The notes beneath the pieces are model-generated. The model saw only the letters and a program-made list of their open reading frames with translations, made no database searches and had not been told where the DNA came from. A DNA stretch of 64,000 nucleotides from Hypomyces perniciosus (Eukaryota; Ascomycota; Sordariomycetes; Hypocreales; Hypocreaceae). The stretch is from NCBI GenBank assembly GCA_008477525.1, contig SPDT01000013.1, positions 1,597,501-1,661,500 of the forward strand. The letters are read 5' to 3'. Numbering within the stretch: the stretch's first letter is position 1; the number at the start of each line of letters is the position of its first letter. The translations under genes and the position numbers were made by a program. Below, one piece after another: positions 24,748 to 57,525 of the stretch.

Positions 24748-25224
24748 TATTAAAAAAGAGGGCTAAAAATAAAGATTTTAATATAATTAGATAATTTTCC
24801 TATTTTAGCTAGACCGAAAATTAAGCTTAATATTACAATTAAATTCTAAAGGAATTTTAATATAAGTTAAGAATTCTCTTTTATTTTTAATAATAATAAT
24901 TAAGCTAAAATTAACTACCCCGCCTATTTTAAACTTAATATAATACTTATAATAAATATTATAAGAAATTTAATGAAAAAGGTTTCCTATTTATATACCT
25001 ATAAGTTAATTTAAGCGATTTTATATATAAATAAATTTTGCAGAAAATAAAAATATAGCTATAAATTTAATTCTGCTACTATATACCTATTATTAAATTA
25101 AAAGACTATTATAAAAGATAAAGTATTATTTTATAATTACTTTTACAATATAGCTATATATTACTAGATATTCTATAGCTTTTTAGCTATAAGATTAAAT
25201 ATAATTTAATTGTTTATTTTATTA
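24748..25224 (+). repeat. 581-bp-family LTR, left part of split copy
   Basis: It matches the reverse complement of 7542-8122 from its end (here tattaaaaaagagggc, elsewhere tgttaaaaaggagggc), with heavy RIP-type change. It breaks off at 25224, where gypsy E starts, and resumes at 57419. Left plus right parts add up to about 580 bp, so it was a full-length LTR before a 32-kb insertion split it. Confidence 0.8.
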
Positions 25225-25396
25225 TATTACGGCACCGACCGTAACGCGATGTTGACGCCCTGTCACGTGAGCCCCGGTCACGTGACCAGGCCCCATCGCG
25301 TTCCTAGCTATAGCTTTCCATAGAGCCTCAGGGCTTTCTCGCTCTCCACGGCACAACAACGATATTTGCCCTGACCTGCCTTTCCGTACTGTAATA
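25225..25396 (+). repeat. 5' LTR of gypsy E (172 bp)
   Basis: It is nearly identical to 57247-57418 and far richer in G and C than its surroundings. It ends gtaata. It carries two GTCACGTGA-type sites around gccccg (about 25262-25285), i.e. a dyad with two CACGTG boxes. Confidence 0.9.
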
Positions 25397-26699
25397 GTTT
25401 ATGCCGTCCCTTAACTCGGCTGTGCCGTCGCGAGGCATATACCCAACCAATTACAAATTCCAATCACAAATTCCTCTAGAATCCCCCTTTATTCCTAAAC
25501 CTACAATAACGCCTCTATAGCCTAGCCTTTATCCCTTAAACCCTATATCTATAGGAAACCAATTATAAGCGAGATAAATATAAATGCCCTAAACCTTACC
25601 CTACAGCCTAACCTAGCCCAATAAACTATAGTTTTAGCTATAAAGTTTACGCCTTTCCCTTTTCTCTTTAAAACCCTGTAAAAATCTAGCATTAATAGCG
25701 ACTATATATATCTAATAAACGCGATTATTAGGGACAATAACCTTCATTACTAATTCTATCTCTTTAGCCAAGCAATCAAGAAAGGCCTAGCTTAATAAGA
25801 AAAACGAAAATAAACCTTTAAATAGGAAATCTTAAAGTAGGCAGCTAAAAATCAAGACCTTGAGGTATAAATCAAGGCCTAGGTTAAAGCCTTAAATATA
25901 GCTTTACTACTAAGCCCTAGAAATAATAACCTATTTAGCCGCCACTAGACTAAAGACCCTAAGTAATTTAATAGTAAATAAAAAGATATTACTAAATATT
26001 AGTAAAAATACATTAACTGGCATTCCTAGATTAATATTACCTTTATAGGCGACTAATTAATCTTCTCGACTAAACTTAAAAAGATCTTATATATTATAGG
26101 TCTTTTAAAGGGAGATATATACTAACTGCAATAAGGAAACTTTAACACTATTATCGAAAGTCTTAATAACCCTGCCTAATAGCACTAAAAGATTAATATA
26201 GTACTTTTCGCTAATTTTAATAAATAATATAAAATAATTAACCTCTCTTAAAAGGCATTACAGTCCTTTAATAACCTATATATATTAAATAAGCCTTTTT
26301 AGAACTTTATAGTAAAGTTATCTGCACTAGGCAGTAAATATAGTAAGACTACTAAGCAGATAGTAAAGGCTTTAAAGATAAAGGTCTTTTAAAAGCTTAT
26401 TAATGCTATAAAGACTTAAGTAATTAAGTTAAATAAGTTTAATTTTACTAAATAGTATTAACTTTATTAGACTATTTATAATAGGCTTTAAGAGGGCGCC
26501 TACTATAATGCCTTCTACGCTGCTTAAATAGGTTAATATTAATAAAGCTATTAATAGCAGCAGTATTAACATTAACAGCAATATTACCAACGCCAGCAAA
26601 ACAACTAAGCTGCTGCCCTAGCGCCAGCTAATAACCTAATGCAATTAAATACTATATATACCCTGCTACCTTGCCTTTAAGTCTTTTGCAAGGAATATA

Positions 26700-26780
26700 T
26701 CGCTAAAAGACTTTACTTTTACTGTAAAAAAGTAGGCTATAGCTTTAATAAATGCAATAAAAAAAAGCAGTTTAATATAT
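26700..26780 (+). pseudogene. Gag zinc-knuckle relic of gypsy E
   Basis: The plus strand reads RLYFYCKKVGYSFNKCNKK. This matches the CX2CX4HX4C layout of retroelement nucleocapsid knuckles, with the first Cys and the His both replaced by Tyr. TGT to TAT and CAC to TAC are the changes RIP makes, so the gag product would not bind zinc normally. Confidence 0.7.
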
Positions 26781-29093
26781 ACTAAGGCAATCTATACTAG
26801 ATATAAAATTAAAACTGTTAAATTTAGCTATATTAGCTATACCTTAACCTAGCAGTACTTTAAAGCCAATAATAAAACAGCCTAGTAAAGTATAATAATT
26901 AAACTCTACTAGCGCGTTAATATTACCTGCAATGCCTAGGTAACCTATAAATTTAAGCCTTAAATAATATACCCTCTTTAAGTATTAATAAAAATAATAA
27001 CAGTAGCGCTGCTTTATTAACTTTTAATTTACTTTAATTCAGCTAAACCTATTTATTAGGAACCTAAACCTAACTTGTAAATTAAAGAAAAGATTAACTT
27101 TTACTGAAAATCGCAAATAAAGGTTAACTATAAATAAAACTATTATCCTAGAATAGATCTACTATTATTTTTTTAATTAAAAACCCTTTAAACTTAAATT
27201 AATAGACAGTAAATCCCTTTTAATATAAAATATACTATTCTTTATATATAATATTTATATTAATATAAAAGCTTTAATAAATAATAGCTGTATACTTTAG
27301 GCTTTTACTAGCTGCGCTTTTATTAAGCGATTTAGTATTACTATTTAATAACTGCTATTTACTAAAAATCTTTTATTTACTAATAAAAGTATAGCTAATA
27401 AAATTTTAAACTTTTTTATTATATAAACTATAATCAGCTTTTATAAAAAACTTTACCTTTTTATTATTATAAATATCCTTAATAATATACCTATAATCCT
27501 TAGCCTTTTATAGCTAAGAAAATATAACTTTAATATTAACTAGGAAAAGTTAACTATTACTTTTAAATCCTATTACTATTATAACTACTATCTCCCGAAA
27601 AGTATAGCTAGCCTTATATAAGTCTTAATAGCAGTTAAAATAAAAAATAACTTCGCTAAAGCTAATATAGGGAGTATATATTACTAGTAACTAATAGTCG
27701 AAAACGCTTTAAATAAAGCAGAGCCTAACTTAATTAAATAAAAAACTATACTATACCAGCAATTATTAGTTAAAAATACCTTAAAAGAAATAAACTATAA
27801 CTTAATTAAAGAAAAAGCCCTTAAACTGTATATTCTATAAACTTTAACGCTAAACCGAGATTACTATATAACCTGCAGGTATAGTAGAATTAATAATAAA
27901 GAAATATAGGCATAAATAATCCTAAATTAAATATATATAAAGCCACTGCCTGCCCTTATAATCTATAGTTAATAATAAAAAGGGAAACCCTTATTAAAGC
28001 TATTATTACTACTTTTTAATATATTATTTCCGTAAAACTAAACTAAACTCTAAAATTAAAAAGTATACCTAGCTATAGCGGATATATAAATAATAGCAGC
28101 TATAAACTTTATTACCTTTTATTAATAACTATATATCCATGCAATAAAAGTAAACTAAAAGGAGATTAACTAAACTATTAAAATTAAAGAACTAATACCT
28201 ATTACTTTACTAAAGCTCCTAGATAAGTTTTTCTAATAAATACTTATAAGATAAAGAGACTATATTAAAGCAAAAATAATATTACTTAAAGAAATATATA
28301 ATTTTATTAATAAATACTACTCCCTAGTATAACTAAAAAAGATTATAGCCGCCAATATTAAGAAATTTATAGTAGGGAAACCTAAGTTTAGTAAACTAAA
28401 TATCTTAAAAAAACTGCTATTTTAACTACATAACTTACATAACGCCTTCCTGCTAAAAACAGTAAACAAGCTTCCTTTATAATAGGCCTAAGACTATAAA
28501 ATCGAGATACTGCTAGGAAAAGACCCGCTATACTAAAAGAATAAACTATTTTTACTTAATAAACTGCAGGTAATAAGAAAATAGTTAAATAATAATTTAG
28601 TAAAAGGATTTATCCGCAAATTGTAAGTATAATAGGCTATTCCCTTCCTCTTAGCCGCAAAACTAAAAGGCAGCGTTTATATTTATTAAGATTACTAAAG
28701 GTTAAATAATATTACTATTAAAAATTAATACCTATTACTATTAATCTAGGAAACCTTTAATGCTTTAAGCTAAGTAAAGGTATATATAAAACTTAATATT
28801 ATCGCTATATTTAATAACCTCTATATTATTAAAGGGGATATATAAGAAATAGTATTTATTATAAGGTTTAGCCTCTTTAAGATATTAGTTATACCTTTTA
28901 GCCTTTATAATATACCTGCTATATTTTAATACTATATTAACTATACTTTCTATAACCTTTTTAACTGTATTTATATAATATACCTTAATAATATCTTTAT
29001 ATATTTATTATATTAATAAAAGTACTGAAAATATATATGCAAAGTAGTAGCCTGCCTTTAAAATACTAGCCTCTAAATTAATATTATTAAATG

Positions 29094-32000
29094 TCAAGCT
29101 TCCCTCCTACACCTACAGGTACCCTACCTTTTAGGTGCCTACTCACCAAAATTCATAACCTTTTAACTAGCCATTAAGAAAAATAAGCTTAATAATACTC
29201 CCTCGCCCCTCCTAGGCACTTAAAGAAAGATAGCGAATGCTATTAAACTTTAAGTAAACTAGGGATAATTAAACCTCGCTGCTATTAAGCAGGCAGTAAT
29301 CTAGCGATTTGAGAAAGAGGGCACTCTTTTGCTTTTAGGATAAAGAGGAACTACAGTCTTCCTGCTTATACCTAAGAAACGATATATTGACAATAAATGC
29401 ATTAAAACTAATATCCCTAAACTTAATTTCGGCTCTAATATAAAGCCTAGCGTCTCTCTCTTCTTAAAAGGGACCTAGGAAAGCCTCTCTTCCTCCCTTT
29501 AAAGTAGGCCGATAAAAGTACTTGCCTTTAATAACAGTAAGCAGTCTACTGCAGCCTATAAAATCTTCGCGCAGATTAAAGAAATTAACGTAATTTAAAG
29601 AGCTAGATAAAAAGTTCTATTCTCAGTAGCCCAAGCTATCGATAACTGTTTAGCTAAATATTAAAGAAAATACTATCTTTTAGCCGCCTTATAAGTAAGT
29701 AAAGCGCTTACTGATACTCTTAAAGGCCTCCTCTCTTTAAAGGCCTTTATAGACTTTAAAAAGTTAAGCAGAAATCCCCTTTTAGCCTAACTAATAACTA
29801 TATAGCTAGTTAATAAAAGACCTACTAAAACAATAAGCAATAATAAATCGAACCCTACCCTTTAATTTAAATTAACTTAAATGCTCTGCTAGAGATTAAT
29901 AGCTTAAAGTAAGTTATATAGGCTATAATTGCAGTTAAAGGCGCAAATAAAAACCCTTTAATAAGAAAAGAAAATAATTTTACTTTGCAAAATAATAAAA
30001 GGCCAGCCTCTATTATAAAACCTAAAACCTAAAAATAAAATATAATAATTAGAAAACTTAATAATAGAATTTTCCTTTAAATCTTATTAAACTATAATTA
30101 AAGAAAGATTACTGCTATTAAAGCTAGATAGGAAATTATTAAAATTAAAAAGTTTAATAAAAAAGATATTATTTACTTTTAAAAAGTAAAATCTAGCTTT
30201 ATACTATAAGCTAAAAATAATAAAATTAAAAAAGTAATCCTTGCCTTAGGCTTAACTATAAAGGCTAGCGGCTTAAAGATTAAAAAAGTATATATCTAGA
30301 GGAGTTTTCTTATATAAAGTGTTCTTAAATACTATACTAATACTTTAGGCACTTTCCCTATTAATGCGCTAGTTTTAATTAAAGCTTAAGGGAGCGCTAG
30401 GTTTAAAGAACCTTTAGTCTTTTACTAAAAGGCCCCTTTTAGCGAGACTATTAATACTTGCTATTACTTTATCTCTTTTAAAAAGGAAGTTAAAATAGGC
30501 TTTAAACTCTTTAACTACTTAGCCCTAGCAAAGCTTTAAACTTAAAAGGCATAGATAACTTAATATAATAAATACCTTAGCTTTTATAACCTTTAAAGAT
30601 ACACTAAAACTATATAATATAAAAAATACAGTAAGCCTACCTTTTAATATACTAATAAAAATAAAAACTGCAATTACGTTACCTAATATATTAACTGCCT
30701 TAAACCTTACTAATCTAATACTTTAAACTGCTATATATATTTAACTATTAAAGATAGTATAAAAGTATATACTATTAAAGAATAATTTAAGAGTATTAAA
30801 AAACTTAAAATTTAAGAATTTTAAAAAAAGAACCTTGCCCCCTTTACCCTTAAGCCTAAATCTAGCGCACATAAAGGAAAAGCTCCTTAAACTGCCCTAG
30901 CTAGATTTTTTACTGCTCCTACTCTTAAAGCCTAAATTTAAAGACCCCTCCTTTTAAATAGGATAATACCCCCTGCCCCTATAATAAAGCTACCTTAAAA
31001 TAAAATCAACCTAATAAATATCCTTAATAGTTTATTAAAAGAAAGTTTACTAGCCTACTTTATAGTAAAGGTTATTAATTTTAATAACTTTATAAATAAC
31101 GCTTTAAAGGAATCCCTTAAAGGAGATAAACCCTATAAGTTTAATCTATAAATAATAGACTTTATTAAAACTACTAAAAAAACTTTAACCTAAAAATCTT
31201 TTAAGCTAATATAAGAAAATAAGGATAGTATTATAATATAGCCCTTTTACTTACTTAAAAAAACAGCTTTAATATTATATTTATCTAAAAGCTATAGACT
31301 TATTAAAACGCTTTATTATCTAGGAAACAAACAAAATCTTACCTTAGCTTTTAAGTATTTAACCTACTTAACAATTAAAGGGAGACTAAACCCTTTATCT
31401 TTATATATATTAGAAAATTATTAAACCTATTATATTAATAACTTTTACCTTTAAAACTAAAAAGTAATTATATTTATTAGGTAGAAGTCTATAGATATAT
31501 AATTATTAACGTTTACTATAAGGCTTCTTTTAATATTATAACAGAAACCCTTAAAAGGTAGGGCTAGCCCCCCTTAAACTTAATTATTATAAAAGACTTT
31601 AATATATTACACTAAATATAATAACTAGGCCAAGTCCTAGATACTCTAGGCAATAAATTAGCTAAATAAACAGATAAGTATAATTTAATCCTTGCCTTTA
31701 TAGACGCCTTTATAAAGGATTCTAGAAAATATATTAACCTTGTTTTCTTTAACTGCCCTATATTAATAACTATTATAAAAAACTTAAATATAGGCTTAAA
31801 CTATTATACAGTTACTATTATACTTTTAAGCTTTATTAGGCTAATAGCTAATATAAAAAAGAAATATATCCCCTTTAAAAGCCTATAAGAGTTTAGCTAG
31901 TTAATATATATATATACCTAGCTCCTCTTAAAGGTAAATGCAATTAACCTAACTAAAGGGGACCTAGACGCAGCTATATAAGTACTTTAGAGACTTTTCG

Positions 32001-34136
32001 CGGACTATATATAGTCGGCAGGTAAAAAGAGATACTAGAATAGATATAGCGCCCTTTAATAAAATAAAAACTGCTAAATAGCCTACTTAGCTTATATTGC
32101 GGCGCCCCTTAAAACTAATAAACGGACTAAGGCAAGGAAGACACTATATAATACCATTAAATATAAAAAACGCAATTACTAAAATAAAATTATAGCTAAA
32201 GCCAGCCTAGGCAAGGGTATCTAGCAGGTAGCTAAGTAGCGTAAAGCTATAGACTATTTCTAACCCCCCCCTTTAATAGACAGCAGCAGGAGTATTTTAA
32301 ACCTTAAAAAGTAAACAGCTTTCTTTAAAAAATACCTACTATAGCGAAAGGGAGCTAAAAAAGATATTAAAGACCCCTAAGAACCCTAAGTACTAGAAAA
32401 CCCTTAAATACTATAAGATAAAACAGTTATTAAAGAGGAGGCAAGGAAAGTTATAACTAAAGCAGGGAATACTGCGCCTAGTATAGATAATATATTAATT
32501 ACTTTTCTATACTATATATAGCCTACTATTAAAAAGTTTATTATAAACCTCTTTAAAGGTTACTTTAGGCTAGGATATTACCCCCTCCCTTTTAAAAACA
32601 CTAAAATTACTATTATACCTAAGCCTAGTAAGCTTAACTATATAACTTATAAAGCCTTTAAGCCTATTTTACTGCTATTTTATATAGGAAAAGGCTTTAA
32701 AAGGCTATTTATAAAAAGGGTATCCCTTTTAATATTTAAATATAAAATCCTTTTAAAGCAGTACTTTAAGGCCTTCTTTAAAAAAGCAGCTATAGACCTA
32801 GTCGCCTACCTAATTTATAACATTAAAATTGCCTTAAATAAAAGGGAGGTCGCAACTTTATTTACCTTTAATATCTTTAAAGCCTTTAATATTATTATAA
32901 AAAATAAACTAATTTTATAATTTAAGCAATAAAGCTAGCCTATCTAGTTTATAAAATAAATAGAGTCCTTTATAAGCAATAAAACTACTTTTATTTATAA
33001 AGGAGACAGGATTAATTTACTAGACCTTGCCTTTAAGTGCAGTACCTTATAGGGGTCCTTTATCTCCCCTATTATATTAATACTTTACTTTAGCCTAATC
33101 CTTTAACTTAAAGACTAATAATTTTATATTAAGTATACTAATAATATCGCTATATTTATTATAAAGGGGTCTACCTAAAAAACAGCTACCTTTATATAGT
33201 AAGCGCTTAATAAAACACTAAAATAAAAAGCAGAGAATACAGTATCCTTTAACTATATTAAAGCTAAACTGCTGCACTTTTACTATATAAAAGGCCAGAT
33301 TTATAAAAAAGGCATTATAATAAAGGGAAAACCAGTCTAGCTTAAAAAGAATATCTAGTAACTAAAGGTCTACTTTAATTTAAGGCTCTCCTTTAAGAAA
33401 TATATAGTAACACTTATAGGTAAAGTATATAAAGTCTTTAACTTCTTTAAATTGCTTAATAAAACTTAAAAAGGCTTACCTTTTAAAGCTATAGTATAAG
33501 CTGTAAAGGCCTATATCCTCCCTATCGCCCTATATAAAATAAAAGTATAGTGGCCAGGGCATAAACAATAATCGCAAACTAACCCTACTAAGCAGGTAAA
33601 TATAAAAGTATCTAGCCTAATAGATAAAATAAATAAAGCCTTTAAGACTGCAGTAAAGGCAGTTTTCCTAGTCTAGAAAACTATAAGCGTTCCTATTTTA
33701 TATAAAGAGTCAGGGGTCCCTATAGCCAGTATCGCCCTAGCCTAAGCCTAACTTAAGTGTATAGCGAGATTTGCAGGACTAGATTAAGACTATTTAATTA
33801 GCTAATATATTAACAAAAAACTCCCTCCCTAACTGCTATAAACCAGACTTTAATACACCGCCGCCCTAATTGGCAAAACTAGTAAACCTACCCTCTTTAC
33901 TAAAAAGTCCCTATATATTCTCCCTAATCCTAACTTAAAAGGTATAGGTAAATTAACTGCAGTAAGGAAACACTTAGAATTAATTAACTCCCTCCCCCCC
34001 TACTTAGTTTTAGTTTACTCTAATAGGTCTTAAATTAAAGGGAATATAGGCTAAAGAGCGTTCGCTTACTATAGAGTAAAAGCAACTATAGACACTAGAC
34101 GCCTTAATAATATAAAGGTCTATAACGCAAAGGTAT
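29094..34136 (+). mobile_element. Tad1-like LINE (non-LTR retrotransposon), 5' part
   Basis: The LINE starts right after one copy of the 14-bp duplication aatattattaaatg (29080-29093). ORF1-type sequence with a damaged CCHC-like region lies at about 30.60-30.75 kb, endonuclease-like sequence at about 31.3-32.0 kb, and reverse transcriptase at about 32.68-33.20 kb. The RT reads LVAYLIYNIKIALNKREVATLFTF.. (shown in part), then IFKAFN and the active-site segment YTNNIAIF, where the family has YADDI. The RNase H domain begins near 34.0 kb and is interrupted by gypsy A copy 2. Stops are frequent; it is not functional. Tad1 placement rests on the RT wording and the C-terminal RNase H. Confidence 0.8.
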
Positions 34137-34298
34137 TGTCACGGCACCAAACCTGCCCTCTAATAACTTATTAGTATCATGTGCGTCCTCACGTAATGAC
34201 TTAGTCCTATACCTTCAAACCACATTCTTATAGCTTCTTGCCTTATTTAAGGCACAATAAAGATATTACCTTAACCTACTGTTCCATATGCCGTAATA
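34137..34298 (+). repeat. 5' LTR of gypsy A copy 2 (162 bp)
   Basis: It starts tgtcacggcacc and ends gccgtaata, and is homologous to 3212-3373. Its ends form an ~11-bp inverted repeat (TGTYACGGCAC against the complement of the end). Confidence 0.9.
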
Positions 34299-37200
34299 GT
34301 TTATGCCTTCCTATAACAACTATACCATTACCCCTAGCCCTTAACCCTGCCTAAAAAGAATTAATAAAGTCACTAATGGCCTAGTCGCGATACTATAAAG
34401 AGCCCTATATCTTATAGGAAATTCACTAATCCCCAACTATAGTGAGACCTTAAGCCTAAAAGCCTATATCCCTGCAGTAAAGAATATACCCTAGCCCAGC
34501 TCCCTAGCCTATACCCGATTCTTTAGCCTGCATTTAACCTAAGAATACTAAAGTAAAAATAAAAGGTATAGAAAGGGACCTTAGTTAAAAAGCAAGGCTT
34601 ACTAATTATTTCCGCAATTAACTTTATATCTATATTATCTTAAAAGCTTATAATAATAATTATAACCTAACCTTATAGCTTTAAGTACTAGAACTCGAGC
34701 AGTTTTTTAATATTATCTTTAACTACTTCCAGAACTAAAAGTATAACTTTAATATAGCCTTAAAATAGAAAGAGTTTAAGAATACTGCTATTATTAAAAA
34801 CCTAAAGCTCGCTTAATATAAAGTCTAAAGCCAAAGCGATATAATCAATAAACTTATTAAAGCTAAAAGTAATAATATTTTAAAGCATTAAACTAATAAC
34901 CTTAAAGATAAATTTAACGCTAAGGATAAAGATATAAAAACCTATTAATAGAAGTATATAAACTAGTATTCTATTATACTGCGCAATATTATAATTAATG
35001 CCAAGTACTTTAATACCTCCTATAAATATATCCTTTATATTAGCAGCTAACTAAATAATAATACCTATAATTTAATATAAAAGGCACTTAACTATATTAT
35101 AATAAAAAAGGATAATTATATAATATAAAAATAGGGAAGTAGTAAAACTTTTATTAAATTCCTAGACTTATAGTATAAAACTTTTAACCTTTCGCGATCT
35201 ACTGCCTAAGAGTTTAATACCTACTATATAGCAAATAAGCCATTCTAAAACTTTATTACTAAATTCTATAAACTAGCAGCCTAAGCCGGCAAAACCAATA
35301 CCTAAAAGGTTAATACCCTTTACTTTAAAGTATTTAAAGAGATAGCTGCTGCCTTTATTAATAAAAGCAATAAACCTATAAGTAAAGATAACTAGTCTGT
35401 TTAAAGAACTTTTAGTTAGAAAGTTTATAATAACCTTGAAAAGCAGGCCTATTACGCTAAACTTACAGGCAACTGTAAGTTTAAGAAGCTAAATAGTAAT
35501 TATACTTTTTAATAAACCCTGCCTTAAAATAAATTAAACCCTTTAAAGTAAGAAAATGCAGGCAATCTTATATAATTAAATACTATATCCTTTACCTTAC
35601 AATATAAAGAATACTAATAACTCTATAACCTATACTATTATTATAGTGGCCAATATATAGTCAGTAATTATATAGAAAAGTAGAAAGCTAATACTATAAA
35701 ACCTTAAACCCTATAGGGATATAGTAGCGGCTTCTTAGGATACAGAATATATTAAGGCAACAGCACTATAGCGCCTTAAGGCAGGGTATATATCCTAAAC
35801 CAGGGAAAAGGTATACCAGCACTATAAGTTCCTATTCCCTAATTCCTATAGTACTAGCACTTTTTAACTTAAAGAAATAACCTATTATACTATAGGAACC
35901 TATTCCTATACTATATTAATAAGACTAGCTGTGTCGAAGGATTAGTTACTTTTAGCGATATACTTGCCTATAAAGATATAACTTTTAATATAAAAAGGCA
36001 GGGAAAAGAGTAATTTCCCGATAATATTGCGTTAAAAAGCGTAATAGAATATTGAAATAGCCTATAAACCTAATACCTTTATAGATATAATAGATTATTA
36101 TTAATAATAGACTATTAATTTTAAATACTATAAGTAGCAAATCACTACTTATCTATACTATATTATTCCTTACGCATTTACTAGTAACTATATTAACCTT
36201 TATTAATAGTGGCTGTTTAGTATAAGGCTTTATAGACTAGCATTTTCTCTAAAAGTCTTAAATCCTAATAATACAATTGCCTAGATTAAAGAGCCTTATT
36301 TTAATTAATGGCAAAATAATAGTATAGCTTACTAATTATATAATCTTAAATATAAGAATAGGGGAATATAGAGAGCTATATATATTTTTTAGTATTAATC
36401 TCTTAAATTAAAACCCCTTTATCTTTAAAATACTATAGCTATAGTAATATAATCCTAATATCGATTAGCCTATATTAACAGTTACCTTTAATTTATAATA
36501 TTATTTAATAAATTATTGCCTTTAAACCTATACTGCACTAATAATTCCTAGCCTAATAACTATTCTATATAATATTAATATTTTAGGTAAACCATTAAAG
36601 TTAATACTTTATATTACTAGCGAGAAATAAAATAATATATTAAAGAGGATAAGAAAGAAGGTTAAAAAGAAAGTTAGGTTTTAAGCTTATATTAAAAGTA
36701 TACTAGAAGAAATAATGCCTTAATAGGGAGAAAGGGACTTATATATTAACTGTATATTAATACTAAGGCAAAATCACTACTATATTTATCGACTTAATAA
36801 CTGCAAGGGATTAAAGACTAAAGTATAGATAATACTAAATAAGCCTTTAACACTAATCTTAACAATACCTATAGCTAATAGCTATTAATATCTATATTAA
36901 TATAACCCAGTATAACTCTTTAAGTTAAGTGTATTAATACCTAATAAGCTTATAGCAGTGGCGCTATATAAGCGACTTAACTTAATAGATATTTAAATAT
37001 TTACTGCAATATTATTTATTTAGTTCTGTAAAGACCTATCTGCCTAATATATAAAACTAACCTAGGTAAACCTGGCAGAAGATATATAAAAATGGGAATA
37101 TAAAGTATATTAACTATTAGAGTTTAATAAGGATACCTTTGTAAGTATATTATAAGGATAAGGCAGCTTTATAGCAGTATAAGTATTATTCCCTATAGCT

Positions 37201-44341: not shown

Positions 44342-44567
44342 TGTTACAGGCTAGGCCATGTCTCCCGGAATTACAACTATACCGAATCCGGAAATATAAC
44401 CAATACTAGACTGCTTGCCTAATTAGGAAACCACCTTGGCCATAACCCTATACATACAACTATATAATACATACATAGCTAATATAGAGCTTCCTTCCTT
44501 CAGCTATAAATAGACAATACAGAGGTGCCCTAACTGTATGCTTTCCACTTAGGCTACACCTATTATA
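44342..44567 (+). repeat. 5' LTR of gypsy B (226 bp)
   Basis: It starts tgttacaggctagg and ends cctattata. The same 226-bp length is found at 56503-56728. Confidence 0.9.
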
Positions 44568-46901: not shown

Positions 46902-47304
46902 TGTTGAGGGGGAATTGGCACTCCAAAATATACACACAACACACACACATACCCATACACAACGACTGGTATTAAGCGCGGGAACCGCGCTCCTGACAGA
47001 ACCACGAAGCGGCGATTAAGTAATATAGGGGCTAAAAAGATACTGCGGATCATTTAATCATGATGCCGGCAGCCAAAAGCAACCAACGGTTACCTTCATA
47101 CGCCTCAGCGACTGTGTTCTTATAGGTGGGGTTATGTGTTGAAGGGGGAAGAAGGTTGTTGTTTATTAAACTAGGTCTATCTGTATGTCTTTATACTCCC
47201 GTGCTTTCCTAATCCAGTGGCTGCTTATTTAAGCAGCCAACCTTTCTCGGGTAAGCTAACAAGAAAAAATGCTGGTGCGTTGGGCATATCAGTTACCCCC
47301 GACA
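46902..47304. repeat. ~400-bp LTR-like repeat (family LTR399), copy 2
   Basis: It starts tgttgagggggaa and ends ttacccccgaca, and is closely related to 8741-9139 but much less AT-rich. It contains the CA-rich tract and the same hairpin (agcgcgg-gaa-ccgcgct, about 46976-46992). It interrupts the RT of gypsy B after YSLYNF. Just past it the conserved PFGLTNAP region is partly missing (ISIPAVF), so the site also lost sequence. No clear target duplication. Confidence 0.7.
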
Positions 47305-47425
47305 AAATAAATAGCAGGTAGTTTTATTTAAATTTATTAGTATACCAGCAGTATTTTAATAGTATATTAACTAAATACTATACCCCTTTTTAAACAACTT
47401 TGCGTCTATATACCTTAATAATATC

Positions 47426-47505
47426 TGTTAAACCAAACTGTAAAAGTAAAGACGCTTTCGCTAAAAGCAAGGCATATTTTGCAACTTATTGGCTGTATTT
47501 CAACA
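47426..47505 (-). repeat. 3' LTR of copia element (80 bp)
   Basis: On the minus strand it runs tgttgaaatacag..tttaaca. It is nearly identical to 53897-53976 and adjoins the polypurine tract gagggggaa. Confidence 0.9.
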
Positions 47506-47824
47506 TTCCCCCTCAGATAAACTTCAATTATTAAGAATTGAAAATGTAAGCTGGATTAGAACTTATACCCAATTAAGTAGCAATTAAAACCATACTACTA
47601 TACGACTTATTTAAGTTGTGTAGTCCCTGTAGAATTATAGGTTAAAGTTCGGTTAAACTATAAATAGACTTTGACCTCGGTCTTATTGATAATGCCGATT
47701 TATCTAAAGGGTTCCCAAGCCCTTCCTGGGGTCAAGTCGGTTTAACTTCGGGCTTATTGCTCTTTGGGCTTATTGCCGATTTCCTAGCTTGAAAAAATCT
47801 GGGATTTTCTGGGATTCGAACCTA

Positions 47825-47855
47825 AGCGCAGTAGAAGCGGCAGGGACTTATAACC
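47825..47855 (+). other. Initiator tRNA-Met 5'-half-like sequence (extended primer-binding site)
   Basis: The plus strand reads agcgcagtagaagcgg then cagggacttataacc. This resembles the D-arm to anticodon-loop half of a eukaryotic initiator tRNA-Met (gcgcag.ggaagcg..cnggg..cataacc), with small changes. On the minus strand it directly follows the end of a 581-bp LTR, where a primer-binding site belongs. The other half of the tRNA is absent, so it is not a tRNA gene. Similarity was judged by eye. Confidence 0.55.
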
Positions 47856-48436
47856 TGTTAAAATAACAAGGTTATACTGAACCTCATTTAAGTGCAGCTT
47901 CTAGGAAGGTGCACCTAACGCAGCAATAAGGAAACGACTGAGAGTCTAGTTGGGTTAACAATGGATAAACAATTGAATTGTAACTGAACTAATAGCTAGA
48001 AAGCTATAGAATATCTAGTGATGTGCGGCTGGTGTAGAAGTGAATTGTATGAACAATAGCTTTGTCTTCTACAATAGTCCTCTGACCTAACAATAGGTGT
48101 GCGGTGGCAGAATTGGGTTCGTGGCTGCATTCCTATTTTCCGCAAAATTTATTTGTATGTAAAATCGGTCAAATCGACTCACGGCCATACAAACAGGAAA
48201 CCATTTTAGTCAGATTTTTCACAATAGCCATTATGGCCATTGTATTGAGTCTAGGGTAGGCGGGGTAGCTGGTCCTAGCTCAATTGTTATCGTTGAAGAT
48301 AACAGAAATTTCCTGACTTACACCGAAGTTCCTCCGGAACTCGGTCCTAGTGTCGGGCCTAATTCCAGGTCTAGCCAGAATAGGAAGGTTACCCAATTAC
48401 ACAGAAATCCTTGCTTTTTAGCCCTCCTTTTTAACA
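47856..48436 (-). repeat. 581-bp-family LTR inside the copia element
   Basis: It is the same 581-bp length as 7542-8122 and 43624-44204. On the minus strand it is preceded by the purine tract cagagggag (48437 upward) and followed by ggttataagtccc, a primer-site-like sequence. No target duplication flanks it (taacc against ctccc). It lies between the copia RNase H and the copia's own 3' purine tract and LTR, so it looks like a real element junction rather than a random solo insertion. Confidence 0.8.
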
Positions 48437-48639
48437 CTCCCTCTGGAATAGATACTATCCTATATAACTTTAAAGTAGATATAGGATCTAGATATAGGAA
48501 AGTAACTAGGACATAACAATAAAAAGGATAGCCAAATATAGCTGAAAATAACAGGAATAACCAGGATAGCTAATAACTAAAAAAAGAAAAGGGTAAGAAC
48601 CTTAGGTATAGACCTTAGGTAAAAGCTTGAGATTAAGGA

Positions 48640-51600
48640 GACTTATAAAGTTCTTTAATTTCGGACCTGGAAGAGGTTTAGTAAGCCCGTCAGTAACCAT
48701 TTTACTGGTTTCCAGATAGCTGACTGTAATAACGCTATTTTTAACCTGTTCCCTAATATAATTAAACTGTAACAGAGTATGTTTTGTTCGATTATAAAGG
48801 GTAGGGTTATTTAAGGTAGAAATAGCACCTTTGTTGTCGTTAAGTAAAGAGATTAGCTATCTAATTGGTCGATCTACCTCTTTATATAGGCCAATAAGCC
48901 ACTGAATCTCCCTAGTAGCTTCTATAAGAGCTATAAACTCTGCTTCTAGTATAGAAAGACAGATAGTTAAGCCCCTTTTCGATTTCTAGCTAATTAGCCC
49001 ATTAGCAACCATAATAATATAGCTATAAATCGATTTGCTTAATTCTTTATCCCCAGCAAAATCACTATCGCAATAACCAATAGGTATAGGACTAGATTTT
49101 CTAGTATATTAAATAGCTAGATCCTGGGTACTATTTAGATACTGTAATAGGTTGCGAGCTGCAGTTAAATACTCTTTATATAGGCCTTAGAATTATCTAG
49201 CTAGCCACTAGACTAAAAAGCTAGTATCTACTCGAGTATAAATTATTAAGTAGATAATAGTATTAATAATAACTTAAAAAAGCTTAATATTAGCTTTATC
49301 TAGTTTAATTATAGTTTTATTAGCTAAAATAGAGGGCTGTAAGGGTAATTAGATAGGCTTAGAGTTTTAAAGGTTAAAAAACTCTATAGCTTTAGTAATA
49401 TATTATTTCTAGGAAAGCTAAAGAAGGCCTCTTTTTCTATCCCTAATTATCTAAACCCCTAAAAAGAAAAAGGCAAGGCCTCTATCTTCTATAATATAGA
49501 CTTTATTAAAAGCTAGCTTTAGCTAGGCTATAGCTTCTTTATCTAGTCCAATAAAAAGACAGTTATCTATATAAGTAATAATAAAAATACCGTTATTTAA
49601 ATTATAGAGAATAGCAGAGTCAGAAATTAAAGGATTATATCCTAGTTTATTTCCTAAGGCTTATAAAGCCTGTTACTATTCTTTAAGGGACTGTTTTAGG
49701 CTGTAAAGAGCTTTCTGTAGCTAAATAACCTAATCTATATTAAGGTTATAACCCAGCTTTCTAAGAACAGACTTAATCTTAAAGGAAGCTTAACTGGCAT
49801 AGTCTTTAAATCTTTTAGGGAAGTTAAGGAAAATAGTTTCCTTAAGTATCCCATTAAGGAATACACTAATAAAGTCGATTTGTTCGATTTCCCAGTTATA
49901 GATAGTAGCTAGGGCTAATAAGAGCTGCCAGGTAAAAGGAATAGCTATTAAGGTGAATGTTTGGTTGAAATCTATTCCTTCTAGTTATTGGAAGCCCCTA
50001 GCAACTAGTCTAGCTTTAAATTTAACTATTCTATTATTCTAGTCTTTCTTAGTCTTTAAAACTAATCGACTAGTAATAGGATTCCTGCCTTTAGGAAGAC
50101 TATTACGCTTAATAAAAGTAAAGGTGTATTGTTTGACTAGCTGGTCAAATTCGCTATAAATCGCTGCTAGCCATTTAGTCTTATTAGGACTATAAAGTAC
50201 TTGCTTGAGCGTTTAAGGGTCTTGAGCTGCAGTAGCTGGAAAGGCTAGCTTTCTAACGCTATTATAGAGAAAGTGGGATATATCTATATCCATAGGATCC
50301 TCTATAACTGCAGAGTCTTGTATAACTGGTATAGGAATAAGACTAGGAATAGGGGGAATAGTAGTGGGTACTCCCTTTAGAATAGGGTCAGGGAGTAAGG
50401 GATTAATATCCTAAGAGCTAGGAATCATTTGATTAATAGAATCTAGCTCTATTTCTCCCTTTAATTCCTTATTATCCTAACCTGTAATAGGTTCTAGGAT
50501 TTAAAGCTTAGGAATCTTATCTTTATACAGCTTTATAGTTAACGATTTAAAGACTATATATCTAATTAAAATATAAATAAGATAGGTATTATTACCTAAA
50601 ACTGCTAGCAGTCTCCCAGTTTCAGTCCTAAGGGCTAATTTATAGCCCTTAGCCCTTTGTTTTTACAAAACGAATACCTTACAATAAGAGCCAATAATCC
50701 TATATCTTCGCAGATTAGGCTTATAATCCTTATTAAGGTCTAGGTCTTTATATAATTCTTAATAAAGGGTAGAGTCCCTATTAGTAACAGCTATATAGTT
50801 AATTAATTTAAGAACTGCAGTAATAATAAAATTCCAGAGATATAATAGTAGGTTAGCTGCTATAATAATAGCCTATAGCCTATTTAATAAAACTTTAATA
50901 AAGCATTCTATTAAACCATTCTGCTTATAAATATAAAGGCTGCTATAGGAATATATAATTCCTAAAGAAAAGAACCAGGTCTAAAGTTCCTAATTAATTT
51001 CCTTTCCGCTATTGTAATGAAATTCCTTAAAATACCGGTTATACTGCGTTTTCAGGCTATTTATAAAGCCTTATATAGTAGCTAGAAGGGTAGGTCCACC
51101 ACGATCTCTTAAAAGGAATAGCCACCTATATCTTGATTTTCTATCGATAATTAAAAGACCAATAAGGGCCTTATTATAAGGCACTAGCTTTATAGAGAAA
51201 GTATCAGCTTCTAGACAATCTAAAGAGGCTAGTGGATCAGGAATTGGCTTTAAATAAAGCCTCTTCATAGCTTTTCCCTTATCACACACTAAACAGTAAA
51301 ATTCAGTCTCTTTAATAGAATTAAAGTTAAGAATTCCAGTAATTATTTTAGCCGTCTTCGTTAGTAGACTTAAGCTAATATAACCTAGTCTTTTATGCCA
51401 TAAAAGGGCTAGCTTTAGTAGCTTGTGGCTAGAATTACTATTAATAATAGTATCTCCCTCTAGTTCAGATAGCTTAACAACTTTTAGATCTTTAGTAATA
51501 GAGGATTCCCTAGGCACACAGGGCCTTTCCTCTACAAAGGTATCCTCTATAGGCTTATTCCCCCCTATTTCCTCAGGCAATAGGGGCATACAAGGCCCCT

Positions 51601-53539
51601 TTTCCTCTACTTAGCCTAGGGTTTCAGGGAGTTTAGAGGGATCCTTTTCCTTAAGATAATTCCTCTTCATAAGCCTAGGGCTAGATCTAGTTAGTTGTTT
51701 ATTCATTGAAGCTACTGCTTCCGGAATAGCAATATATTCCTAAGCCTTTTCCTTACTAATAGTAGGAATTTGAACCTATATAAAGCTATAAGCTCTATAG
51801 CTATTTATATAGCTATATAGTGTAGTGTATCCTTTAATTGTAAGGAAAAAACCATATTTTAAGGGATTTAACAGCCTTATTAGCTGCATAGTTTTCATAA
51901 AAAGAGTATTATACTGTATATATCCTCCAGCTTAGTAATGCCTTAAACCACTTATAAAGTTTACATCTAGCTGTAGGCAATAAAGGGTATTTAGCAATTT
52001 TATCTCTTTATAGTTATTATCCTTATTAAGGATATTAAAAGTGGCTGTTCTTATTCCCTTAAGGGTAACAGGGCCCCCGCCAGTATAGACAACACCTAGG
52101 TCCCCTTTATTAAGTCTATAGTCTATAAACCATTTCCTAGAATTAACTATATAAACTGTAGATCTAGTATCATATAATAAACTATCTTAAATAGAAAGTT
52201 TAAGGGGTTTAGGTTTTTTAGAAGATTTAAAAGGCTTAGAAAGATTAAAAGACTTTTTTCCTTTCTTAGCGTTTAAAGTATATAAAAGATCTCGATTACT
52301 ATCTAAACTACTAATAGATTTAGTAAAAGACTCTTCTAACAGCTCTTTTAAGCTATACTCCCCAGTAGCTAGATAATATATACTAGCAAAAGCAGTATCC
52401 TCTATAGTTTACTTCTGGTTTTGTTGATTCTAATTCTTTTAATTCTTTTGATTTCCTTATTTCTTTTGATTTCCTTTCCTTTTATTAGAATTAGAAGCTA
52501 GCTTTTAATTGGGGGACTTAAAAGGGCCTAAGGCCTTATTAACCTTATATGCAGTTAAAGATAGATTCCTAGTCTCTTTTAATATATCTGCTATAAGGAA
52601 CTGAATATTAAAACCTTCAGTAGATTGCCCAATAGCTCTGCTAAATCTAATAGTTCCTTTAATTCTTTCAGTCTACTAAAGATAAGTCTTTTCTAAGGCA
52701 TTTAAATATTAATTTACTTAATTTAGTATATTAATATTAACCTTTAAAATAGCTAGCTTAGCCAATAAGCTATTAAAAGTAGCATTAAATTTAGCTAAAG
52801 ATCCTTTATAATTACTGTAATTTAATAAATGAAATTCCCTATAAAGGGAATCTCTCTGCAGAGTATTAGAGTAACTATATTATCTCTTTAATGCTAAAAA
52901 TACTTCTTTTAGGCTTTGAATCTAAGTAATAGATATAGCAGGAATAGCTGTTAAACTATCCCTAATTAGTATAAGTAATAGGGCCTATTCTGAATCAGAT
53001 AAAGAATCAGCAACTATAGGATTTTCTATAAAAGCATAGTAATCTATAGCCCTTAGTATAATACTTAGGGACTGTTTCCACTAATTAAAATTATTAGGGC
53101 CCACTAGCTTATAGCTTTCTGGAAAGCTATAGACCTTTTTTGATGCCTTTTTAATAAGACTACTATTTAGAGTAGAAATAGTATTTTAGGGTTAAGGAAT
53201 AGATGTAAATGGAACCTGGACTGGTATAGGAATAGGAGTAGGAGCTTATATTGGCACTGGTATAGGGGCTACAGGATTAATTTCTATTGGACTAGTAGTC
53301 TGTTGAGATTAAAGACCTGAGATAGCAGCAGTTAAGCTAATTAGAGTATTATTTAGCTGGGTTATAGTATTATTCTGACCCTCTAGCTGTGCCTTGACAG
53401 TCTCAGTAAGAGCCCTCTGTGCCTGAAGCTCTTGTTCTATATTCTGCACCTAAATAAATAGATCCCTTTGCTGCTTGGGAGAGCTATTATCCTCAATTAA
53501 GGAAATAGGGCTATTAGGAGCCCTGATAGGTCGACTCAT
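48640..53539 (-). pseudogene. Copia gag-pol polyprotein relic
   Basis: One frame can be followed on the minus strand for most of its length, broken mainly by TAA/TAG codons in place of Gln or Trp codons. Domains in order: gag from Met at 53539; coiled-coil-like NIEQELQAQRALTETVKAQL; KSPN..KRKGNQKK basic patch; aspartic protease with GGG changed to AGG (DTRST); GAG-pre-integrase LLWHKRLGYISLSLLTK and knuckle-like FYCLVCDKGKAM; integrase start FSIKLVPYNK; RT SLKQ and YIDNCLF; RNase H end. The longest open piece is 51071-51589 (172 codons). No protein of use could be made without multiple readthrough. Confidence 0.85.
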
Positions 53540-53713
53540 ACTGCTGTCAGACCTATATCCTATCGAAATAGGGAATATACTATATAGTATATATCAATCA
53601 CTAAAAATAGTAAAAATAGTAGCAGTACTGCTATAACTGCAACAGTATTTACAGTAGAAGCCTAGGAATAGCTTCAGATAGCCAAGAATCCTAAAAGTGC
53701 TAATATAAGCACT

Positions 53714-53845
53714 AGGATAAGCACTATAAAAACCCGCTATAAGTGCTGTAGTAGCGTTAGGGGAAGTGCTGTAAATACTAGGATAAGCACTATAAAAACC
53801 CGCTGTAAGTGCTATAGTAGCGCTAAGGGAAGTGCTGTAACCACT
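53714..53845. repeat. Two tandem 66-bp repeats in copia leader
   Basis: The two units, 53714-53779 and 53780-53845, differ at a few positions, mostly C/T or G/A. They lie between the copia 5' LTR/primer site and the gag start. The open minus-strand frame through them (TALxAGFYSAYPS repeated) is a product of the repeat, not evidence of a gene. Confidence 0.75.
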
Positions 53846-53896
53846 AGAAAAATCCACTAATAGAGACCCGAGGAAAACTCTCCCGGGCTCATAACC

Positions 53897-53976
53897 TGTT
53901 AAACCAAACTGTAAAAGTAAAGACGCCTTCGCTAAAAGCAAGGCATATTTTGCAACTTATTGGCTGTATTTCAACA
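53897..53976 (-). repeat. 5' LTR of copia element (80 bp)
   Basis: It pairs with 47426-47505 and differs at very few positions. The atatc duplication lies at 53977-53981. Confidence 0.9.
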
Positions 53977-53981
53977 ATATC

Positions 53982-56502
53982 CTAATCTATACTGATAGGT
54001 TATAAAAGGACTATATAAAAAAGGTCTAGCAAGTTTTATACGCCCTCGCTAATACTAGGCTATACCTAGATCCTAAAAAGTGCGCATTTATATAGAAAAA
54101 GATTAAATACTTTAAGTTTATTATATATACCGGTAAAAGAATTGCCTATAACCCTAAAAAGCAGTAAGCTATTAGCAAGTAGCAGGCACCTATAATAGTA
54201 ACAAGAGTCTAAAACTTCTTTAACTTTACTAATTACTACTAGATATTTATCCCCGGGTTCTTTTAAATAGCCTACCTGCTTATAAGGCTAACTAAAAAAG
54301 GGACCCTTTTCTAGTAGAAAGGTATAAAAAAAGCAGCCTTTTAAAAGCTTAAACGCCTCTTTATTAAAGCCCTTATACTATAAGCTTAAAATCCTATAAA
54401 ATACACTTTTATTAAAGTAGACTATTTAAAATATACTTTAAAAAGAGTCTTCCTATAAAAGAATAAAAAAGGAGAATATTATACTATAGCTTACTATTTA
54501 TAGAAGCTAAGCCCCGCTAAATATAATTATCTTATTTATAATAAAAAAATACTAACAGTAATTTACTATTTAAAAGAGTAGAGAGTAAAGCTATATAGCT
54601 ATAACCCCTTTATAATTATTTTAAACTATAAAAATTTATAGTTTTTTATAATATACAAAAAACTCTTTAAACAATAAACACGCTAGGCAAAGTTCCTTTC
54701 CTAGTTCGATTTTACAATCCAATATAGGCCAGGCAGTAAGGCAGCTGCTCTTAATGCATTAAGCTGCAGGGAATAAGACCTTCCACTTAATAAAGGCAAC
54801 AAGCGCAAACTAAACCGCTATATATAACTTATCCTAGCCATACTAGTAATATAGAGATTTAAAGATAGCAATACTAATTTCCCTTTAATATATATATTTA
54901 ATAGAAATAAAGAACTACAGGACCTATAGAACCTAACGATTTAAAAGGACCCGGTATATCGATAAATATATACTGCAGTTAAGAAAGAAAAGCGCTCCCT
55001 CCCTGCAGACCTTTAACTTAAAGTATAGATATTAGAATATATAATCGATAAGGAATAGAGATTAATGTTCTAAGACTATATTTAAGTACCAGCTATAACT
55101 AAAAAAGAAAGCAAAACGCTACGCATTTATATTATATAAGCAGAATATAACACTATAGTCTTAGGCTACCTAGGTTATAATAGAACCTTAACTATTATTT
55201 CCTGCAGGTTTTTTTAGCTAGGAATTAGCAGTATAATTTAACAATTCCTCTGCAACTACAGTATATAAAAAAAAGGAAAAGTATAGAGAAGCTATAAGTA
55301 AAAACTCTTTAAACTACTACCTATTCCTTAGCGTATCTGCAGTAACCTAACTATAGACTTTATAGTTAACCTACTACCTATAAAACTAATATAAGTATAA
55401 TACCTTTAGGTTATTATTAATTAGCTTACTAAAAATATTACCTTTAAGGTAATAGAGAGTATAAAGGCAGAAGTATATATAAAGAGGTTCCTTTAATACC
55501 ACTATTAGTTTTATAGGATACCCTAGTCTATAGTTAATAACCAAGGATCTAATTAAACTAGCCGCTTTTAAAGAGCTTTCTATAAACTAGCAGGAACCCA
55601 GTAATACCTAAGTACAGTATATTACCTATAGACTAACAGCAGACTAAAGAGGAGCAACTAAAAGATCTAAGTATACCTTAAAGTATATATAGACTACTCC
55701 CAGAGCAATTAGGGAGACCTCCTCCTAGCAGTATAACTAGCTTTAAATAACCGCAAATATACAGCTATCCAAATAAGCCCCTTTTTCCTTAAGTACAGCT
55801 ACTATATAAAACCCCTTTAGCTATATATAAAAGAAAATAAAGCTATTAAATTAAAAGATTTAGAAAAAAAGGCTATAAAAGAAATAGTTAAAAGACTAGA
55901 AGGAGTAACCGCCTTTGCCTAAGCAGTATTTACCGCTATACAATAACGCTATAAAGACTCCGCAAACTAGCGGCAAGGCCCCTTTAAGAGATATAAAGTA
56001 AGAGATAAAGTCTAGCTACACTTTAGTAACTATAATACTCCCCAGCCTTTTAAAAAGTTTAATGCCCTATATTATAAATATACAGTAATAAAGGTTATTA
56101 GCCTTTATATAGTGGAACTGGGCATATTAACTGGTATATACCCGCGATTTCACGTTAACCTTCTAAAAAAAGCAGCCGATAACCCCTTTCCGGGCCAGAT
56201 TTCAGATAACCCTTAACCACCACCAATACAAGTAGATAGCGAGGATGAATAGGAAGTTAAAGAGGTCCTTTGCGCGAGGACTAAGCGGCAAGGTCGCGGC
56301 TTTTTCCGCGAAGTATTAATACAGTAGAAAGGATATATAAAGCTAACCTAGGAACCGATACACGTACTTAAAAACACAGCAGCCCTCGATGACTATATAT
56401 CTAAATATAGCCCAATCGAATCTAACGATGGGCCACTTAACAGCTATGCGCCAGCGAAGCAACGGCGCCCAAGGAGAGAGCCACTGTAAGAAGGGGGGGT
56501 AA
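53982..56502 (+). pseudogene. Gypsy B pol relic, 3' half
   Basis: The reading resumes after the copia insertion: LIYTDRL, then ALANTRLYLDPKKCAFI*KK and FFNFTNYY*IFIPGFF, which is the RT connection of gypsy elements. RNase H and integrase follow to about 56.15 kb, with GYLGYNRTLTII near 55.17 kb at the integrase zinc-binding region. RFHVNLLKKA (about 56150) is the usual end of integrase, and the chromodomain comes next. Confidence 0.8.
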
Positions 56503-56728
56503 TATCACAGGCTAGGCCATATCTCCCAGAATCACGACTATACCAAATCCGGAAATACAACCAATACTAGACCGCTTGCCTAATTAGGCAACTACCTCGG
56601 CCATAACCTTATACGCACAACTATATAACGCATACAGAGCTAGTATAGAGCTTCCTTCCTTCAGCTATAGATAGATAATACAGAGGTGCCCTAACTGCAT
56701 GCTTTCCAGTTAGGCTATACCCGTTACA
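56503..56728 (+). repeat. 3' LTR of gypsy B (226 bp)
   Basis: It starts tatcacaggctagg and ends ccgttaca, preceded by a purine tract. It is clearly less mutated near its end than the 5' LTR. Confidence 0.9.
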
Positions 56729-56814
56729 TATTCTAGGCAAAAGATAATTAATAAAGCCAAGTTAAAGAATATTTAAAGCAGAATACTAAAAAGAGAAAAT
56801 AGTATAGATAAAGT

Positions 56815-56990
56815 ATAAGAGAAATAAGAGTTTAAAGCGCTTTTAAATTATTATAACAATAACGGATTCTATTATTTTATTAAATAAAAATACTATACTG
56901 CTATATAGCAATTAGCTAAAGACCTATAAGGCTAAAAGAAGGTAATATAAGACTTCTATAAAAGAAACTTAAAGAAGCCGGGCCTACCGC
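56815..56990 (+). pseudogene. Chromodomain relic of gypsy E
   Basis: This is the gypsy E reading after the gypsy B insertion: DKV*EK*EFKALLNYYNNNG, then FYYFIK*KYY, LAKDL and DFYKRNLKKPG. It has the chromodomain layout with Trp codons turned to stops. Confidence 0.7.
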
Positions 56991-57246
56991 GATAAGCACT
57001 AAAAGGAATTATAAAAGAGGAAAAGGAGGAAATAGCTAGAAAGAAATTAATGCCCGCAGAGCGCTAACCGAAGACTACACCGCGCCAAAGCCTACAACTA
57101 AACCATACATCACTAATACCAAAAACTATACAATTCGCCCCATTTACCCTTATATTAAAAGTATTAAGATGGATTACCCGGAATTTCGATTTATGCGAGC
57201 AATATAGCTATTCGCGGCTGAATGGCGTAATAAAGAGGGGGGGTAC

Positions 57247-57418
57247 TGTTACGGCACCGACCGTAACGCGATGTTGACGCCCTGTCACGTGAGCCCCGGT
57301 CACGTGACCAGGCCCCAACGCGTTCCTAGCTATAGCTTTCCGTAGAGCCTTAGGGCTTTCTCGCTCTCCACGGCACAACAACGATATTTGCCCTGACCTG
57401 CCTTTCCGTGCCGTAATA
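57247..57418 (+). repeat. 3' LTR of gypsy E (172 bp)
   Basis: It starts tgttacggcaccgacc and ends gccgtaata. Differences from 25225-25396 are few, almost all C/T or G/A. Confidence 0.9.
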
Positions 57419-57525
57419 TATTGTTTACTTAGTAAACTCTTAGTTATTTCCTTATTACTGCATTATATACAGTTTCCTAGAAGCTATATATAAATGAGGT
57501 TTAGTATAACCTTATTATTTTAATA
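57419..57525 (+). repeat. 581-bp-family LTR, right part of split copy
   Basis: This resumes the LTR broken at 25224: ttactgcattatatac..cttattattttaata matches the final ~100 bp of 43624-44204. Its first five bases (tattg) are the duplication made by gypsy E. Confidence 0.8.

What the first reader, a model, noticed from the sequence alone, without database searches (positions are those of the whole stretch)
24748..57525. Deep nest of retrotransposons resolved to the base
A 581-bp LTR contains gypsy E, which contains a LINE (itself split by gypsy A), a solo LTR and gypsy B; B contains a copia element with another LTR inside. Borders are supported by LTR pairs of equal length (172, 226 and 80 bp), purine tracts, and duplications tatta/tattg, the 14-bp aatattattaaatg, ggtat, aataa, cattc/tattc and atatc. 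Reading frames of the hosts resume exactly after each insert. The order of insertion follows directly.
Basis: seen in the sequence. Interest (0 to 1): 0.75.

Follow-up and report, generated by a model that had tools for sequence, protein, structure and literature searches.

The report
Nested, RIP-mutated fungal retrotransposons

Summary
The nest is real. LTR pairs, target-site duplications (TSDs) and hosts resuming in register support: gypsy E (25225-57418) in a 581-bp LTR; inside E a LINE (29094-41578), a solo copy of that LTR (43624-44204) and gypsy B (44342-56728); gypsy A (34137-40707) inside the LINE; a minus-strand copia (47426-53976) inside B.

Corrections: (1) the outer host is not a lone LTR: 23284-24747 is copia sequence joined to that LTR at the same junction as in the inner copia; (2) hence the "LTR inside the copia" is not shown to be a later insert: no TSD, copia coding end and purine tract on one side, a primer-site-like sequence on the other; (3) a ~0.4-kb insert in B was missed; (4) A's LTRs are unequal (162/129 bp); (5) nesting gives a partial order only.

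The block carries the signature of repeat-induced point mutation (RIP) and lies beside genes closest to hypocrealean fungi. One-way C-to-T load in shared sequences independently supports outer = older. LTRs of all four LTR elements keep more CpA/TpG than their interiors; the cause is unresolved. Nested RIP-ed blocks are published as widespread in Epichloe. Ordinary in kind, useful as a stratigraphy.

The parts
23284..24747 (+). C_out: RT/RNase H end of a Ty1/copia-type element, very heavily mutated (GC 9.7%), joined to the 581-bp LTR; outermost host, left end truncated at 23284
   Evidence: aligns to 50009-48437 (minus) of the inner copia; with the LTR 1408 matches, 462 transitions, 61 transversions, score 1837.5 v 34-48 for five shuffles
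24748..25224 (+). C_out 3' LTR (581-bp family), first part; last 5 bases are the TSD of E
   Evidence: 358/488 columns identical to 43619-44104
57424..57525 (+). C_out 3' LTR, second part (my statistics stopped at 57523)
   Evidence: alignment to 44087-44205
25225..57418 (+). gypsy E with all its inserts; LTRs 25225-25396 and 57247-57418; TSD 25220-25224 / 57419-57423
   Evidence: RNase H (5.9e-13) and integrase zinc domain (3.5e-05, just under the Pfam cut-off) in one frame at 41000-43623
29094..41578 (+). LINE (endonuclease-RT-RNase H type) with gypsy A inside; 14-bp TSD 29080-29093 / 41579-41592
   Evidence: P0241 residues 1-997 match 31148-34132, residues 1001-1235 match 40718-41404
34137..40707 (+). 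gypsy A; LTRs 34137-34298 (162 bp) and 40579-40707 (129 bp); TSD GGTAT 34132-34136 / 40708-40712
   Evidence: RVT_1 5.8e-09, RNase H 8.6e-13
43624..44204 (+). solo 581-bp LTR in E; TSD AATAA 43619-43623 / 44205-44209
44342..56728 (+). gypsy B with its inserts; LTRs 44342-44567 and 56503-56728; TSD 44337-44341 / 56729-56733
   Evidence: RNase H 1.2e-11 at 53979 onward
   Evidence: 414/540 columns over 46886-47424 v 8725-9248; flanks TAATT/AAATA do not match
47426..53976 (-). C_in: copia element with 80-bp LTRs (53897-53976 and 47426-47505); TSD ATATC 47421-47425 / 53977-53981; PBS-like GGTTATGAGCCCG at 53896-53884; purine tract at 47506 onward
   Evidence: RVT_2 2.6e-32 and three weaker copia domains below cut-off in the same frame
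47856..48436 (-). 581-bp LTR inside C_in, between copia coding end/purine tract (48437 side) and a PBS-like sequence (47855 side); no TSD

Best explanation
An AT-rich block of retrotransposon remains in a hypocrealean-like filamentous fungus. Elements landed one inside another: a copia (C_out), then E in its 3' LTR, then LINE, solo LTR and B in E, then A in the LINE, and the ~0.4-kb element and a second copia (C_in) in B. C-to-T mutation of the RIP type, heavier in the outer layers, destroyed their coding frames. Shown here: borders, TSDs, register at the tested sites, homology of the outer flank to copia, the mutation signature and its direction. Inferred: RIP as the agent (no RID gene or cross was examined), fungal placement from one neighbouring gene, and that C_in is a mosaic of two copia-type elements (80-bp-LTR and 581-bp-LTR) rather than a copia with a later solo-LTR insert.
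For: Borders/TSDs; register; outer copia flank; RIP composite index 0.63 to 1.47 in the 29 bins of 2 kb covering 1-58000 and -0.42 to -0.71 in the 3 gene bins; one-way change on shared sequences: inner to outer copia 332 v 14, LTR581 C_in to solo-in-E 31 v 6, solo-in-E to C_out 112 v 6, C_in to C_out 133 v 3; GC of the same LTR 0.17 (C_out), 0.36 (solo in E), 0.41 (C_in); neighbouring S41-peptidase-like gene, best named match Tolypocladium paradoxum 73% over 96% (best 120 of 495 listed).
Against: Interior GC is not strictly monotonic with depth: A, at depth 3, has GC 0.273, lower than LINE 0.301 and B 0.306 at depth 2. E's LTRs are hardly mutated although E is an old layer. The right flank at the copia and solo-LTR sites fits register 0 only narrowly. 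Assembly errors cannot be excluded without reads.
Confidence: 0.87

Rival explanations
1. One reading: the 581-bp LTR in C_in is a solo LTR inserted into the copia, and the outer copy is a solo LTR too.
For: The family does make solo LTRs with clean TSDs (AATAA in E; GTTAG at 7542-8122).
Against: In C_in there is no TSD (TAACC/CTCCC), and in two places (48437 and 24747) the same copia sequence meets the LTR at the same base. On the other side lies GGTTATAAGTCCC, 3 mismatches from the PBS-like sequence of the 80-bp LTR; that pattern has 9 matches in the window with up to 3 mismatches against 5.9 expected, about 5e-5 per position.
Confidence: 0.15
2. LTRs are spared because RIP needs long duplicated stretches or weakens at the edges of a repeat; everything was mutated in place after insertion.
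For: Papers state a size limit (over ~550 bp in PMC6218096) and that small elements are less affected (PMC8759822; passages seen). A v A-prime pairs stratified by the base before CpA are compatible with independent mutation of intact copies for the A, C and T classes (my reading of its counts). 42 of the 50 usable stop-prone codons are stops in both copies, which saturation alone could give.
Against: The 581-bp LTR copy in C_in is spared too (odds ratio 4.2) although above that size. For the class preceded by G, sites kept in both copies (36) are more than independence from a gene-like density would give (about 17, my arithmetic).
Confidence: 0.6
3. Elements jumped again after their interiors had been mutated, with intact LTRs, using proteins of other copies.
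For: LTR CpA+TpG v TpA odds ratios over interior: E 9.8, B 3.0, A 7.1, C_in 4.6 (4 of 4 LTR elements). Capture-recapture of kept CpA sites in A v A-prime puts the common ancestor at 48 per kb inside and about 190 per kb in the LTR, with similar later loss in both.
Against: Stratifying by preceding base raises the interior estimate to 61 per kb with a class of zero shared sites (unbounded) and shows a strong site effect of a preceding G; per-site heterogeneity of CV2 about 1.5-3 would mimic the result.
Confidence: 0.15

Closest known systems
Nested, RIP-ed AT-rich blocks of Epichloe festucae (PMC6218096, passages seen)
   Same: AT-rich blocks made of several retrotransposons interrupting one another, mutated by RIP, beside gene blocks of balanced composition
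   Different: Different families; that paper orders invasions by non-RIP mutations on trees, here two shared sequences found in several layers give the direction
Ophiocordyceps sinensis LTR-rich genome (PMC7542391, passages seen)
   Same: Large amounts of gypsy and copia elements coinciding with RIP-type regions, in the order Hypocreales (order recalled)
   Different: No nest is resolved in the passages I saw; identity with this species was not tested
Ty1/copia families of filamentous ascomycetes (PMC5445492, passages seen)
   Same: RT of the RVT_2 type in a fungal copia
   Different: That paper reports GalEa without PBS and FunCo1 with a tRNA-Lys-type PBS (ATTAAGAGTCT); here the PBS-like sequence is GGTTATGAGCCCG, which from memory resembles an initiator-Met half-tRNA site as in Drosophila copia
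Fungal LINE protein P0241 (unnamed source)
   Same: 37% identity over the whole 747-aa query; endonuclease, RT and RNase H domains
   Different: An apparently intact reading frame, whereas the window's copy is full of stops and split by A

Membership tests
Ty3/gypsy LTR retrotransposon (E, A, B) | LTR pair with 5-bp TSD | tested here: met
   E, A, B pairs and TSDs; A's pair unequal in length
Ty3/gypsy LTR retrotransposon (E, A, B) | RT, RNase H, integrase in this order | tested here: inconclusive
   A: RVT_1, RNase H and a weak integrase zinc domain (0.015) in order in one frame; E: RNase H then zinc domain just below cut-off; B: RNase H only. No rve domain scored; frames read with X at stops
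Ty1/copia LTR retrotransposon (C_in) | RVT_2 reverse transcriptase after the integrase part | tested here: met
   Pol_BBD, gag_pre-integrs, SH3-like, RVT_2 in order in one frame; only RVT_2 above cut-off; 366 copia-type matches to the RT/RNase H piece, best 120 listed
Ty1/copia LTR retrotransposon (C_in) | one LTR type at both ends and none between | tested here: not met
   80-bp LTRs at both ends, but a 581-bp LTR between coding end and 3' LTR
LINE (non-LTR retrotransposon) | EN-RT(-RNase H) coding, A-rich or simple tail, variable-length TSD, no LTR | tested here: met
   P0241 match; tail aaacaaacaaacaaataaac and 14-bp TSD; Pfam alone found nothing in the pieces
RIP | directional C-to-T change with CpA preference in repeats, genes spared | tested here: met
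RIP | dependence on RID and the sexual cycle | not testable with these tools
   no fungal genome held; no cross
solo LTR (43624-44204) | single LTR with matching 5-bp TSD and no internal region | tested here: met
   AATAA on both sides
solo LTR (47856-48436 in C_in) | matching 5-bp TSD | tested here: not met
   TAACC/CTCCC

The most novel reading that the evidence does not exclude
RIP-scarred retrotransposons kept moving: elements with dead, mutated interiors but intact LTRs were copied by proteins of other elements and built this nest, and C_in is a new provirus made by joining a 581-bp-LTR copia in single-LTR-circle arrangement (coding end, purine tract, LTR, primer site) into an 80-bp-LTR element.
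Probability: 0.12. Interest if true: 0.55.

Novelty: new member of a known kind. Interest (0 to 1): 0.22.

Why it matters
The nest gives a sequence of insertions that does not depend on any clock, with the same LTR present in the outermost, a middle and the innermost layer. That allows RIP load to be checked against insertion order, and it agrees. It also shows that LTR-LTR divergence is a poor clock in a RIP-ing genome (the older E looks younger than B). If the LTR sparing proved to be due to movement after RIP, it would bear on whether RIP really ends transposition.

Tried and rejected
Self-BLAST with loose scoring was swamped by low-complexity AT-rich matches and cut in output; I used only its strong rows. 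tRNA search found 0 genes; Rfam found nothing at gathering score, and three weak, below-threshold matches at 47400-47960, so a tRNA-like reading of the stretch after the 581-bp LTR was dropped. Pfam found no domain in the LINE pieces; the LINE was identified instead. The 5' part of the inner copia (50000-53896) has no counterpart at 9141-23400: score 52 on one strand v 35-39 in five shuffles and 42 v 35-50 on the other; the 52 is above shuffles but gapped and short, and I do not take it as real. A further 581-bp LTR copy was sought in six stretches on both strands with one shuffle each: 33.5-47 v 30-44 in five; in the gene block 73 v 53.5 and 52.5 v 45.5, unexplained. The 350-bp stretch after the 581-bp LTR in C_in is not found after the outer LTR (32 v shuffled maximum 36.5) and matches the leader after the 80-bp LTR only at 41.5 v 38.5; it scores 50 v 35.5 against a stretch that includes the LTR in A-prime, and the 80-bp-LTR leader scores 58 v 37 somewhere in 1-47400 minus (few shuffles); these are unexplained. 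The hypothesis of movement after RIP looked strong at first and weakened when stratified by context. A joined-flank test of A in the LINE first used a border one base off and showed split frames; with the corrected border it holds. Literature: 1 paper with all five terms; 0 papers; I saw only listings. I make no claim that any of this is absent from print.
Full report
Setting. Bases 1 to about 57,900 are AT-rich (2-kb bins 15-36% GC) and the rest is about 50% GC. The composite RIP index is 0.63 to 1.47 in the 29 bins covering 1-58,000 and -0.42 to -0.71 in the last three. Genes at 58-62 kb include an F-box protein and a CPAF-like S41 peptidase; the latter's best named match is Tolypocladium paradoxum at 73% over 96% of the query (best 120 of 495 listed). 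I take the source to be a filamentous ascomycete near the Hypocreales; the species is not identified.

Nest. E is bounded by 172-bp LTRs and TATTA/TATTG; the LINE in E by a perfect 14-bp duplication; A in the LINE by GGTAT; the solo 581-bp LTR in E by AATAA; B in E by CATTC/TATTC; the copia in B by ATATC. The flanks continue in register: six of six tests are best at shift 0 of 25, clearly for the LINE in E (26 v 17 of 30), the LTR in A-prime (28 v 16) and E in the outer LTR (21 v 16), narrowly for the solo LTR (18 v 16) and the copia (16 v 15; 15 v 14). For A in the LINE the two sides match consecutive parts of P0241 (1-997 and 1001-1235), and the joined frame scores 151 against 93-95 for four shifted joins. 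B in E and the small insert in B were not tested for register.

Outer host. But 23284-25217 aligns to 50009-47965 of the inner copia on the other strand over 2048 columns with 1408 matches, 462 transitions and 61 transversions, score 1837.5 against 34-48 for five shuffles. So copia RT/RNase H sequence runs into the LTR at 24747/24748 exactly as it does at 48437/48436. The outer host is the 3' end of a copia, cut off at 23284.

Inner copia. C_in has 80-bp LTRs, a TSD, a purine tract beside 47505 and a PBS-like sequence beside 53897, and its copia domains lie in one frame, only RVT_2 above the curated cut-off. The 581-bp LTR inside it has no TSD; the coding end and a purine tract (CAGAGGGAG) precede it in the element's sense and GGTTATAAGTCCC follows it. 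That arrangement is what a single-LTR circle or a tandem would show. The PBS-like match has three mismatches to the 80-bp-LTR one; the pattern is not enriched in the window as a whole (9 found, 5.9 expected), so the weight lies in its position. How C_in arose is unresolved.

Missed insert. 46902-47304 interrupts B and has a second, more mutated copy near 8741-9140 (51 v 8). Its TSD is not settled.

Order and mutation. Nesting gives C_out before E; E before LINE, solo LTR and B; LINE before A; B before the small insert and C_in. Independent of that, shared sequences change one way: copia 332 C/G-to-T/A from C_in to C_out against 14 in reverse; LTR581 31 v 6 from C_in to the solo in E, 112 v 6 from that to C_out, 133 v 3 from C_in to C_out. 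GC of that LTR is 0.41, 0.36 and 0.17 in C_in, solo and C_out. Against a simple layering, A's interior (GC 0.273) is more mutated than its host LINE (0.301), and E's LTRs are more alike than those of the younger B.

LTR sparing. CpA+TpG against TpA, LTR v interior, gives odds ratios of 9.8 (E), 3.0 (B), 7.1 (A) and 4.6 (C_in, 80-bp LTRs), and 4.2 for the 581-bp LTR in C_in. Papers describe a size limit for RIP and small elements escaping it (PMC6218096, PMC8759822; passages). A capture-recapture comparison of A with a second copy, A-prime at 3212 onward, suggested that the interior was already depleted before the copies parted (48 v about 190 kept-site ancestors per kb), and 42 of 50 usable stop-prone codons are stops in both. 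But sites preceded by G are protected and hold 36 of 47 sites kept in both; the other classes fit independent mutation, and site heterogeneity of CV2 about 1.5-3 would suffice. I leave movement after RIP as an open possibility.

Comparison. PMC6218096 reports (passages) that AT-rich blocks of Epichloe festucae are nests of RIP-ed repeats so common that most copies of most families are interrupted. This window is a new example of that kind. The name half-tRNA initiator-Met for the PBS and the RIP mechanism's need for RID are recalled, not tested.

Noticed in passing
3212-8740: Second copy of gypsy A (A-prime), 86% alike over 3210-7541, itself holding a minus-strand 581-bp LTR at 7542-8122 with TSD GTTAG.
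   Followed up: partly
1-1594 and 11135-12728: Long inverted repeat (84% over 1.6 kb) with a third related piece at 17142-17407; family not identified.
   Followed up: no
9141-23283: Fourteen kilobases at 17% GC, the most AT-rich part of the window apart from C_out; a 128-aa open frame at 14352-14738.
   Followed up: no
23151-23283: A short less-mutated stretch (GC 0.29) directly left of the truncated copia; may be the end of another element.
   Followed up: no
53706-53837: Two 66-bp tandem units, 91% alike, in the leader of the inner copia.
   Followed up: no
57900-58000: Abrupt border from the AT-rich block to a balanced gene block with F-box, S41-peptidase-like and other genes.
   Followed up: partly
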